A stretch of DNA of 47,033 nucleotides from Frankia torreyi (GTDB lineage: Bacteria; Actinomycetota; Actinomycetes; Frankiales; Frankiaceae). Of this stretch, positions 41,288-43,993 are shown piece after piece. The translations under genes were made by a program, and so were the position numbers. Positions within the stretch are counted from its first letter, which is position 1. Every line of letters starts with the position of its first letter. The notes beneath the pieces are model-generated. The model worked only from the letters and a program-made list of their open reading frames with translations, made no database searches and was not told the DNA's origin. Location: NCBI RefSeq assembly GCF_000948395.1, contig NZ_JYFN01000004.1, positions 1 through 47,033 of the forward strand, in the 5' to 3' direction.

Positions 41288-41723
41288 CGGGCGGCCTCTC
41301 ATGGTGCGTGGTGCGGGCGAGCACCCGTGTAACGGGATAGTTCCCTCTCCGAGTCCCGTTGGAAACAAGATTATGCCAAGACAACATCCGTTACGGCAGT
41401 TCGGGCGAGTTGCCCGGCCCGGAAGGGTGAACCTTTCCCGGGTAGATCGTAGATCGGACGGCCGCGAGATGTACCCCCACCGCAGGCGGGCGGATGGTTA
41501 CCATCCGTAGCGTCCGAACGTCCCCCCGAGCGTCAGGCCAACCTGCCAAGGCCGTTCCACTTTGAGCCTTCCCCGTCCGGGTGGTTCTCAACCTTGGCTA
41601 GTCGCGGCGAACCTGACTCAGTCCGCCCACCGGGCGGGACGGCGGACATCGGTGTATCCGTCCGCCGGGACCCCCTGCGTCGGCCCGGATCGGTGCCGTG
41701 TAAGGTGGTCCTACCACCCGCAA
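41288..41723. other. Intergenic region between ssgB and tRNA-Val(CAC)
   Basis: No convincing gene. It contains a possible ssgB promoter (reverse-strand CATAAT at 41375-41370) and an imperfect hairpin CCCGGAAGG / CCTTTCCCGGG at about 41417-41442. A small perfect inverted repeat GGTGGT-CCT-ACCACC at 41704-41718 lies just before the tRNA. TAAGGT at 41701 could be a -10 for the tRNA. Confidence 0.4.
41370..41375 (-). promoter_or_regulatory. Possible ssgB -10 element
   Basis: Reverse strand CATAAT, 83 bases before the ssgB ATG, within the least GC-rich part of the region. No matching -35 was recognised, so the class of sigma factor cannot be told. Confidence 0.3.
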
Positions 41724-41795
41724 GGGCGTATAGCTCAGTGGTAGAGCGCTGCCTTCACACGGCAGAGGTCCGTGGTTCGAAACCACGTACGCCCA
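41724..41795 (+). tRNA. tRNA-Val (CAC)
   Basis: A full cloverleaf. The acceptor stem is GGGCGTA/TACGCCC, the D arm is AGCTCAGTGGTAGAGC, the anticodon stem-loop is CTGCC-TTCACAC-GGCAG with anticodon CAC, and the T arm is CGTGGTTCGAAACCACG. The discriminator is A and CCA is not encoded. A diverged copy of its 3' end occurs at 43124-43153. Confidence 0.97.
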
Positions 41796-41818
41796 CGCGA
41801 TCTGGCTTGTCATGCTGC

Positions 41819-41833
41819 GCCCCCTTTGGGGGC
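41819..41833 (+). terminator. Hairpin after tRNA-Val(CAC)
   Basis: GCCCCC-TTT-GGGGGC, a perfect 6-bp stem 23 bases after the tRNA, followed by TTG. A plausible terminator of the tRNA transcript. A second G/C-run hairpin follows near 41860-41876. Confidence 0.6.
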
Positions 41834-42968
41834 TTGCCGGGGTCTCGCGTGATGTCTGCCCGGGGGGCGACCCCCCGGACCCCCCGCGTTTCGCGTGGTC
41901 GGGGGTTGGGGTGGATGGGGTGGGTGGGCTTGGTTTGAGCGCATGGGATCCCTTGGTGGTTGGGTCTTTGCGCCGGTTGATGGTGGGGGCGGCTGGGGCT
42001 GGGGTCGATCTCGCAGCCGCCTTGACTCGTTATGGCAGGTGGTGGCGGGGCCCGGTGGGCGCGAGTGCTCGCTGGATGGTCTCGGGGCGCCTGGCGGCGA
42101 CCGGTGGGCACGGTTCGGACCGGGGGTTGAGGCGGCGGGTTCGGCGCCGTGGGCCGGGGGTTGCTCCCGGGGGGCTGAGTGGAGACGGGCCGGGGGCGCG
42201 GGAAGCGTCCGGTGCGGGTGGGTCGTGCTCATGCTCGCGCCTTTGAGTCCTGGTCGTCGGTGATCCGCAGCGGTTTCCCCTTTGGTGTCGGTTCCCAGGG
42301 CTGCTAGGCACCGTTGCGCCGACGAGTTCGCTGGGGGCGGGCCGGCGGCGGGCGACCAGATGAAGATCGCCTCTCTGGTCGATAGCACGCCTCCCACCTG
42401 GGAAAATGCCGCTTTTGTCGCGATCCGGGCGTCTGTATCGGGCGCCGGCCGGACCGGAATAATCTCTGTGCGACCCCACTTTGGTGCCATACCGGTGGGG
42501 GTGCTCGACGTCGGGCCCGCGGACGGGGCGCCCGCACCGCGCCGAGCGTCTCCCGGCGGGCGGTGACGAAGGGTGAGCATCGCCGAGGGTGAACCGCTGC
42601 GGTCCGACGGTCTGGCCGACCGACCGGCGGCCGCCTTTTCGGTTCCGTCGGCCGAGAAGAGTGGCCCAGATTGCGAAAAGCCGTCCGGGCTCGGACGACC
42701 GATTTCACCTGGGTGGGCTACCCCGGGTGGTCCGGGGTGGACGGTGCGCCTCGTCGGTCGATCGGCAGAGGTGCCCGGGGGCCGCCGTCCGCCGGAGTCG
42801 GCGGTGACGGGGTGGGGCGAGCCGATTGCGGTGGCCGATGACGTAGCCGTTGGCCCATCGTGGATCGGCATCGTTGTGCGTCCCGCCCCTTCGGTGAGAT
42901 CGTTGATGTGCCCACGGGTTCAGGTCCGGCGCCGGGGATGTTCGCCCGGTTATTTCCGGTCGGCATGA
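41834..42968. other. Gene-poor stretch behind tRNA-Val(CAC)
   Basis: Over 1.1 kb in which no frame looks like a protein. The long frames on the reverse strand are Pro/Arg/Thr-rich without any conserved motif, and the forward ones are Gly/Trp-rich. Base composition varies along the stretch, with T-rich runs at 42270-42290 and 42405-42480. It may be a degraded insertion or hold an untranslated RNA. Confidence 0.5.
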
Positions 42969-43036
42969 GACCCGCCCTGTACAGATCGGCTTAACACCCG
43001 CTAAGCTGATCAGGCAGGGCGTAGCGGGTCCCTTTT
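42969..43036 (+). terminator. Long nested hairpin followed by TTTT
   Basis: Three stacked stems: GACCC (42969-42973) with GGGTC (43026-43030), GCCCTG (42974-42979) with CAGGGC (43015-43020), and GATCGGCTTA (42984-42993) with TAAGCTGATC (43002-43011). The total is about 21 bp with one G-U and small internal loops. CCTTTTG follows. It fits an intrinsic terminator or the rod of a structured RNA, yet no gene lies upstream of it. Confidence 0.6.
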
Positions 43037-43123
43037 GTCGGTGCGGTGTCTCGCGGGGGTGCGTCGGGAGATCCCTCCCGGGCCGTAGTTCCCTTCGGGT
43101 GCGCCGCCGCGGCAGTCGGGACG

Positions 43124-43153
43124 CCGTGGTTCAAAACCGAATACGCCACTCGA
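43124..43153 (+). repeat. Degenerate copy of the tRNA-Val(CAC) 3' end
   Basis: CCGTGGTTCAAAACC followed by TACGCC and ACTCGA aligns with 41770-41800, the T arm, acceptor end and flanking bases of tRNA-Val(CAC), at 25 of 31 positions with one gap. No D or anticodon arm precedes it. A displaced tRNA 3' fragment is what an integrative element leaves at its far end (attR-like). Confidence 0.45.
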
Positions 43154-43196
43154 GGGAGACTGGCGGCGACCCCCCCACGCCGTCAGTCTCCCTCTT
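43152..43196 (+). terminator. Very strong 17-bp hairpin
   Basis: GAGGGAGACTG (43152-43162) pairs perfectly with CAGTCTCCCTC (43184-43194), and the inner GCGGCG (43163-43168) pairs with CGCCGT (43178-43183) with one G-U. The result is a 17-bp stem with a 9-base loop, followed by TTC. It is the strongest hairpin seen in the window and marks the end of some transcript; no protein gene ends just upstream. Confidence 0.65.
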
Positions 43197-43429
43197 CATC
43201 TGCGGGTACGCATCTGCGCGCGGGCGTCATCGCCCCTGTGGGAGCCCCCTCATCGGTCGACGTCCTGATAAATTGGCAGGATGATGGCCACCCTTCGAGG
43301 GGGATCGCCCGATGCAGGTGGCGGGGTTGGCGCTGGGGGGCGGGCCTGGTCGGCCACGCCCCATCCGGCCGCTCCTACCTGCGGGCTCCCCCGGCCAGGC
43401 CGGGACGACGAGCTCGCGGTGACCACCCG

Positions 43430-43993
43430 GTGACCGCCGAGGTCTCGCCTGGCGGGGTTCCGCTGGAGGAGCAGGCCGGGGTCGGCGGCCCGGACGCCTT
43501 CCAGCGGCTTTACACGCCCCACCGGATGGCCTACATCAAGGGTGAGGGGCGCGGTCGCGACGATGAATGCCCCTTCTGCTCCATCGTCGGCATGGCGGAC
43601 GAGGACGGGCTCGTCGTCGCCCGCGGGAATACCGTCTACGCCGTCCTCAACCTCTATCCCTACAATGCCGGGCATCTGCTCGTCGTGCCTTACCGACATG
43701 TGGCCGACTATGCCGACATGGAATCCGAAGAAATCATCGAGATGGCATTTTTCGTGCAGCGGGCCCTGCGCGCGCTGCGCACCGCCAGCGGAGCCCACGG
43801 TTTCAACACGGGCATGAACCTTGGGCACGTCGCCGGCGCCGGAATCGCCTCCCACGTGCACCAGCACGTGGTGCCCCGGTGGGGCGGCGACACGAACTTC
43901 ATGCCGGTGGTGGGGGCGACCCGGGTGCTGCCCGCCCTGCTCGGGCAGACCCGGGAGATGCTCGCCGACGCCTGGGCGGCCGCGGCCGAGTAG
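43430..43993 (+). CDS. HIT-family hydrolase/phosphorylase (diadenosine-polyphosphate type)
   Basis: A 187-residue HIT protein from GTG 43430. The catalytic motif SHVHQHVVPRW has its nucleophilic histidine at ~144. Upstream are FQRLYTPHRMAYIKG, the metal-binding-like ECPFCSI, and LYPYNAGHLLVVPYRHV. Actinobacterial members act on Ap4A-like nucleotides. In many actinomycetes this gene lies directly before the PIP-synthase gene pgsA; here an EF-G-like gene on the opposite strand sits between them. The frame is open further upstream (to 43046), but that part overlaps the terminator hairpin and has no similarity. The GTG start lacks a good ribosome-binding site, so it is provisional. Confidence 0.88.
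   Translation: MTAEVSPGGVPLEEQAGVGGPDAFQRLYTPHRMAYIKGEGRGRDDECPFCSIVGMADEDGLVVARGNTVYAVLNLYPYNAGHLLVVPYRHVADYADMESEEIIEMAFFVQRALRALRTASGAHGFNTGMNLGHVAGAGIASHVHQHVVPRWGGDTNFMPVVGATRVLPALLGQTREMLADAWAAAAE

What the first reader, a model, noticed from the sequence alone, without database searches (positions are those of the whole stretch)
41724..43200. Possible relic of a tRNA-Val-integrated element, or an unrecognised structured RNA
An intact tRNA-Val(CAC) is followed 1.35 kb later by a degenerate copy of its 3' end (25 of 31 positions, one gap) with no tRNA body. Between them no gene is convincing. Two exceptional hairpins occur near the right end: a nested ~21-bp one followed by TTTT (42969-43036), and a 17-bp one (43152-43196) that overlaps the tRNA-like copy. 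A displaced tRNA tail is the classic mark of integration, while strong terminators without a gene suggest a non-coding transcript.
Basis: partly seen in the sequence, partly recalled or inferred. Interest (0 to 1): 0.6.

Follow-up and report, generated by a model that had tools for sequence, protein, structure and literature searches.

The report
New Frankia small RNA with C-rich loop
The odd stretch between a tRNA gene and a protein gene in this Frankia genome is most likely an undescribed small RNA gene whose hairpin shows an unchanging loop of seven C's, a kind of loop that related bacteria use to silence messenger RNAs; it is not the scar of an integrated mobile element.

Summary
The anatomy is real: tRNA-Val(CAC) at 41724-41796, a 24-nt near-copy of its 3' end at 43124-43147, and two strong inverted repeats. 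The integration reading fails: the tRNA-to-HIT-gene interval is syntenic across the family, the ancestral tRNA flank still abuts the tRNA in genera lacking the copy, and the copy lies inside a conserved element found in 13/13 Frankia sensu stricto and 5/5 Protofrankia-type genomes and nowhere else searched. That element is best read as a + strand RNA gene of about 185 nt (about 43013-43200). The first 'hairpin' overlaps a conserved promoter-like block (TGTACA-N18-TAAGCT, spacing fixed in 13/13). The RNA folds into a three-way junction: acceptor-like P1, a P2 with three compensatory changes on a tree, and tRNA-tail-like P3. A 17-bp hairpin with a near-invariant A-C7-A loop follows. G-U pairs fix the strand. 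Rfam has no match; 6C and tmRNA lie elsewhere, no 6S is detected. Most likely it is a trans-acting C-rich-loop sRNA that works like mycobacterial 6C/B11 but is not a member of that family. Expression, ends and targets are untested; no conserved perfect 12-mer target was found. Descent from a tRNA-Val duplicate is possible, unproven.

The parts
41724..41796 (+). tRNA-Val(CAC), intact; upstream neighbour and possible ancestor of part of the RNA
   Evidence: ARAGORN; Rfam 71.8 bits; syntenic in the family
   Evidence: TGTACA in 12/13 and TAnnCT in 12/13 congeners, spacer exactly 18 nt in 13/13; read as a hairpin, changes break pairs more often than they keep them (18 breaking, 13 keeping). Function inferred
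42984..43011 (.). GATCGG-N16-CTGATC inverted repeat flanking the -10 box, possible operator
   Evidence: near-invariant in 13 congeners; function inferred
43013..43200 (+). predicted small RNA (about 185 nt), ends approximate
   Evidence: alignment A4 and consensus fold; fold z -5.2; G-U pairs fix the + strand
43018..43023 (+). P1 5' strand GGCGTA, pairs with 43142-43147 TACGCC (acceptor-stem-like)
   Evidence: 97% of cells paired in 13 congeners, mostly invariant
43024..43031 (+). P2 5' strand GCGGGTCC, pairs with 43119-43127
   Evidence: 98% of cells paired; 9 pair-keeping changes (3 double) against 2 breaking on the tree
43119..43127 (+). P2 3' strand GGACGCCGT (43123 bulged)
43152..43194 (+). 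H2: 17-bp hairpin with A-C7-A loop (43169-43177); probable 3' terminator and target-recognition loop
   Evidence: z -7.9; loop identical in 15 of 16 aligned sequences, C8 in the other; pairs kept through double changes between the two genera
43266..43274 (+). putative extended -10 (TGATAAATT) of the HIT gene, downstream of the RNA
   Evidence: conserved in 13/13 congeners; function inferred
43430..43993 (+). HIT-domain protein gene (GTG start), conserved downstream neighbour
   Evidence: Pfam HIT 1.7e-12; orthologues throughout the family

Best explanation
Window 43013-43200 (+) is an intergenic small-RNA gene. RNA polymerase starts near 43013 from a conserved promoter-like sequence and stops after the 17-bp hairpin near 43195. 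The RNA closes on itself through P1 and P2, holds a small tRNA-tail-like hairpin (P3) in the junction, and ends in a long hairpin that displays an A-C7-A loop. Most likely it acts in trans: the C7 loop pairs with G-rich stretches at ribosome-binding sites and lowers translation of its target mRNAs, the way the mycobacterial 6C/B11 sRNA does. Shown here: conservation, covariation, strand, phylogenetic range, exclusion from known RNA families. Inferred: the promoter, the transcript and its ends, the terminator, and the trans-acting mechanism.
For: Element present once per genome in 13/13 g1 and 5/5 g3 genomes (CM E 1e-12 to 1e-21), 0 of 17 in the other five genera of the family, none outside these two genera in samples of 246 class and 396 phylum genomes, and only Frankia/Protofrankia records in 84,980 species. 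The H2 core is 90-96% conserved against 60-75% in most of the interval. Pairs kept: 97.8% for H1+H2, covariation exceeds 500/500 shuffles and all slid versions; full structure 95% paired, 0/500 shuffles reach it; P2 has three double compensatory events on a HIT-gene tree. Strand: 41 G-U cells on + against 5 that would be G-U on -. No coding periodicity. Promoter-like block with fixed 18-nt spacing in 13/13. Mechanism by analogy: C6-C7 loops of B11/6C repress mRNAs with G tracts, shown by compensatory mutations in M. abscessus (PMC10470900).
Against: No expression data were available. H2 is not followed by a real T-run (CTTCATC). No perfect 12-mer complement of the loop is conserved among genomes, so no target is known. 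P1 and P3 are nearly invariant and add little covariation; the U-A/C-G change in P2 partly follows clades. In g3 the 5' part does not clearly form P1/P2. The fixed position before the HIT gene would also suit a cis-acting leader.
Confidence: 0.6

Rival explanations
1. Cis-acting leader or attenuator of the HIT gene: transcripts from the promoter at 42978 run into the HIT gene unless H2 terminates them, so the element tunes HIT expression.
For: The element lies about 180-430 nt upstream of HIT and on its strand in both genera. H2 has terminator shape.
Against: A separate extended -10 (TGATAAATT) is conserved between H2 and HIT in 13/13 g1 genomes. No alternative anti-terminator pairing was apparent. 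Invariant loop letters are not needed for a terminator. Relatives in other genera have HIT without it.
Confidence: 0.2
2. Relic of an element integrated at tRNA-Val, the tail copy being the distal attachment site.
For: 24-nt near-copy of the tRNA 3' end 1.35 kb downstream; in other genera unrelated genes (P450 in g2, Crp-type regulator in g3) lie between tRNA-Val and HIT.
Against: The tRNA's own downstream flank 41797-41885 is conserved next to the tRNA in g2 and g6 genomes that lack the copy. The copy sits in a conserved, covarying structure shared by two genera. None of the ORFs scanned in the interval matched an integrase or any other Pfam family. In one g3 genome the T-loop letters have changed.
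Confidence: 0.04
3. The Frankia counterpart of 6S/Ms1 RNA, binding RNA polymerase.
For: Length about 187 nt, rod-like fold, own promoter-like block; no 6S match in this genome and Ms1 was not found in Frankiales (PMC9130861).
Against: No open central bubble: P1 and P2 are continuous on the 5' side. Synteny is not that of Ms1. Not found in five genera of the family.
Confidence: 0.05
4. DNA-level element only (operators and promoter of HIT), not a functional RNA.
For: Sequence conservation is strong at inverted repeats, which could be protein-binding sites.
Against: G-U-preserving changes on one strand only, 41 against 5 cells, and pair-keeping double changes point to RNA.
Confidence: 0.08

Closest known systems
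6C RNA / B11 (RF01066), actinobacterial C-rich-loop sRNA
   Same: Hairpin with a run of 6-7 C in the loop, actinobacterial, intergenic; same proposed way of acting (loop against G-tract at the RBS).
   Different: One C-rich hairpin, not two; extra tRNA-like three-way junction; Rfam 6C does not match here, and a 6C candidate lies elsewhere in the same genome (G000:C99:60617-60703, 45 bits).
Streptomyces C-rich-loop sRNAs scr5583 and scr1434 (PMC3765725)
   Same: Stable stem-loop with a C-rich terminal loop.
   Different: The model R1 finds no match outside Frankia/Protofrankia in the class sample; direct sequence comparison was not made.
tRNA-Other of Bacillus cereus (PMC3399842)
   Same: A tRNA-like part proposed to sit inside a larger regulatory RNA.
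   Different: There a predicted pseudo-tRNA is present next to a genomic island; here only acceptor-like and T-arm-like parts resemble a tRNA, and no island is present.
tmRNA tRNA-like domain (RF00023)
   Same: Acceptor-like stem and T-arm-like hairpin joined to a long arm instead of an anticodon arm.
   Different: No tmRNA model match or tag frame here, no CCA end, poor T stem; the genome's tmRNA is at C108:20719-21086.

Membership tests
6C RNA (RF01066) | match to the covariance model | tested here: not met
   no hit at E <= 5 in 41600-43500; candidate 6C elsewhere
6C RNA (RF01066) | two hairpins each with a C-rich loop | tested here: not met
   only one C-rich loop
C-rich-loop sRNA (mechanistic class) | conserved C-rich apical loop | tested here: met
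   A-C7-A in 15 of 16 aligned sequences, C8 in one
C-rich-loop sRNA (mechanistic class) | pairing with G-rich RBS of target mRNAs | tested here: inconclusive
C-rich-loop sRNA (mechanistic class) | discrete transcript | not testable with these tools
   no RNA-seq reads available
tRNA-integrated element | direct repeat of the tRNA 3' end at the far boundary | tested here: met
   24 nt, 83%, but explained as part of P2/P3/P1 of the RNA
tRNA-integrated element | empty site in relatives, ancestral flank displaced | tested here: not met
   flank still adjoins the tRNA in genera lacking the copy
tmRNA | covariance-model match and tag frame | tested here: not met
   tmRNA found at another locus, none here
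6S RNA | covariance-model match, open central bubble | tested here: not met
   no match in the genome; no bubble

The most novel reading that the evidence does not exclude
The RNA arose from a local duplicate of tRNA-Val(CAC): its acceptor strands (GGGCGUA / UACGCC) and T-arm (CCGUGGUUCGAAACC) were kept as a tRNA-like junction, while the D and anticodon arms were replaced by a long arm and a C7-loop hairpin was added, giving a genus-level regulatory RNA with a tRNA-like domain.
Probability: 0.2. Interest if true: 0.65.

Novelty: new variant of a known kind. Interest (0 to 1): 0.48.

Why it matters
No sRNA family specific to Frankia turned up in the papers searched, and Ms1 was not detected in this order. 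A conserved, covarying RNA with a near-invariant C7 loop gives a specific, easily tested candidate in root-nodule symbionts. It would widen the C-rich-loop mode of repression beyond 6C/B11 and, if the tRNA descent holds, show how a tRNA copy can become a regulatory RNA.

Tried and rejected
Integration relic: rejected (see rivals). Hidden protein gene: rejected, no Pfam match and no codon periodicity. The 42969-43036 repeat as a terminator or RNA hairpin: not favoured, since pairs break more often than they are kept, although 90.6% of cells still pair and one outer pair covaries. Known RNA families: none. Conserved perfect target for the loop: the roughly one extra 12-mer per genome lies in unrelated places. 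A homologous RNA in g2 and g6: not found by CM, BLAST or a C-run hairpin scan of the interval. Literature on Frankia sRNAs: no description of this element found in the held papers.

Full report
Setting. The window is G000:C77:1-47033 of a 7.6-Mb actinobacterial genome. Contigs of matching length in the named collection are Frankia and Protofrankia, so the organism is a Frankia of genus group g1; g3 is Protofrankia and its uncultured relatives. Gene order is chorismate-binding enzyme, SsgA-like gene, tRNA-Val(CAC), the 1.6-kb gap, HIT gene, EF-G-like gene on the other strand, CDP-alcohol phosphatidyltransferase.

Observation. All listed features exist. The tail copy is 20/24 in this genome and 21/24 in congeners. 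It exceeds Markov sequences (0 of 1000) but about 1% of arbitrary 50-mers of the window match the interval as well, so taken alone it is weak evidence.

Comparison with relatives. tRNA-Val(CAC) lies upstream of HIT in every family genome whose contig reached that far, with one unclear case (g7, where the contig ends 3.2 kb upstream of HIT without a tRNA). The gap is 0.6 to 3.5 kb and holds different genes in other genera: a P450 in g2 and a Crp-type regulator in g3. In g1 it is non-coding. The stretch directly after the tRNA is shared with g2 and g6 genomes that lack the tail copy, so nothing was inserted at the tRNA end that carried its flank away. Part of this stretch (41848-41888) is a repeat that also lies near other tRNAs, but 41797-41847 is not repeated in the genome.

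The conserved element. BLAST and alignment show that the tail copy and the 17-bp hairpin form one conserved block in all 13 g1 genomes and in g3. A covariance model finds it once per genome in 13/13 g1 and 5/5 g3, never in 17 genomes of five other genera of the family, and not outside these two genera in 246 class and 396 phylum genomes. A pattern scan of 84,980 species returned 15 records, all Frankia or Protofrankia. Weak reverse-strand matches (E about 0.004) are the palindromic H2 read backwards.

It behaves as an RNA, on the + strand. H1+H2: 97.8% of cells paired, covariation above 500/500 shuffles and above all slid controls. Between g1 and g3 three H2 pairs changed on both sides and stayed paired. 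Forty-one G-U cells on the + strand would be mismatches on the - strand, against five in reverse. The A-C7-A loop hardly varies, although a hairpin alone would not require it.

The full RNA. In g1 the block 42978-43007 reads TGTACA-N18-TAAGCT with no length change in 13 genomes, the form of a primary-sigma promoter; the +1 would be near 43013. Folding 43013-43199 gives z -5.2. The consensus is P1 (GGCGTA/TACGCC), P2 (GCGGGTCC/GGACGCCGT), a variable arm with its own hairpins, P3 (GGTTCGAAACC in congeners), then H2. The tree is a single-gene one and parsimony near its root is arbitrary, so H2 counts there are not used. Caveat: position 18 of the RNA alignment also covaries with an upstream base in the rival hairpin, so part of the signal follows clades. 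In g3 a -10-like TACGTT/TACGTC sits about ten bases before the corresponding stretch in three of five genomes, but P1/P2 are not clear there.

tRNA resemblance. The 5' end GGGCGTA and the 3' part CCGTGG-TTCGAAA-CC...TACGCC match tRNA-Val(CAC). Since the 5' strand pairs with the 3' strand, these are not two independent matches. The T-stem is poor in g1, and one g3 genome lost the T-loop letters, so tRNA mimicry cannot be essential everywhere. Descent from a tRNA copy remains a possibility.

Function. C6-C7 loops in 6C/B11 pair with G tracts in 5' UTRs; compensatory mutations showed this for B11, and one-base changes in C number reduce activity (PMC10470900). The constancy of C7 here fits such a role. 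Membership in 6C fails. A scan for a perfect 12-base complement gave no conserved target, which does not exclude shorter pairing. A cis role on HIT is the main rival; a conserved extended -10 between the RNA and HIT argues against it.

Verdict. A probable new small RNA family of Frankia and Protofrankia, with an inferred mode of action; not an integration scar.

Noticed in passing
42474-42530 and 42276-42290: Two further non-coding blocks strongly conserved in Frankia genomes (ACCCCACTTTGGTGC...GGGGG and TTCCCCTTTGGTG); the first can form a CCCC/GGGG hairpin and its exact 13-mer is unique in the genome. Possibly another RNA or regulatory site.
   Followed up: partly
41848-41888: G-run/C-run repeat GGGGGGCGACCCCCC trailing tRNA-Val; like sequences lie near tRNA-Met (C124) and tRNA-Ala (C67) in the same genome, probably shared tRNA terminators.
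   Followed up: partly
42984-43011: GATCGG-N16-CTGATC inverted repeat, half-sites 22 bp apart around the -10 box: candidate operator.
   Followed up: no
43284-43320: A conserved small hairpin (CCACCC..GGGGGA) in the HIT 5' region whose GGGGGAUCG could pair with the loop sequence CGACCCCCC of the RNA at 8 of 9 positions in this genome; not seen in g3.
   Followed up: no
L051:1501-1587 (G000:C99:60617-60703): The genome's probable 6C RNA, 45 bits, just below the Rfam cut-off of 47, with an 11-nt insertion in the first loop.
   Followed up: partly
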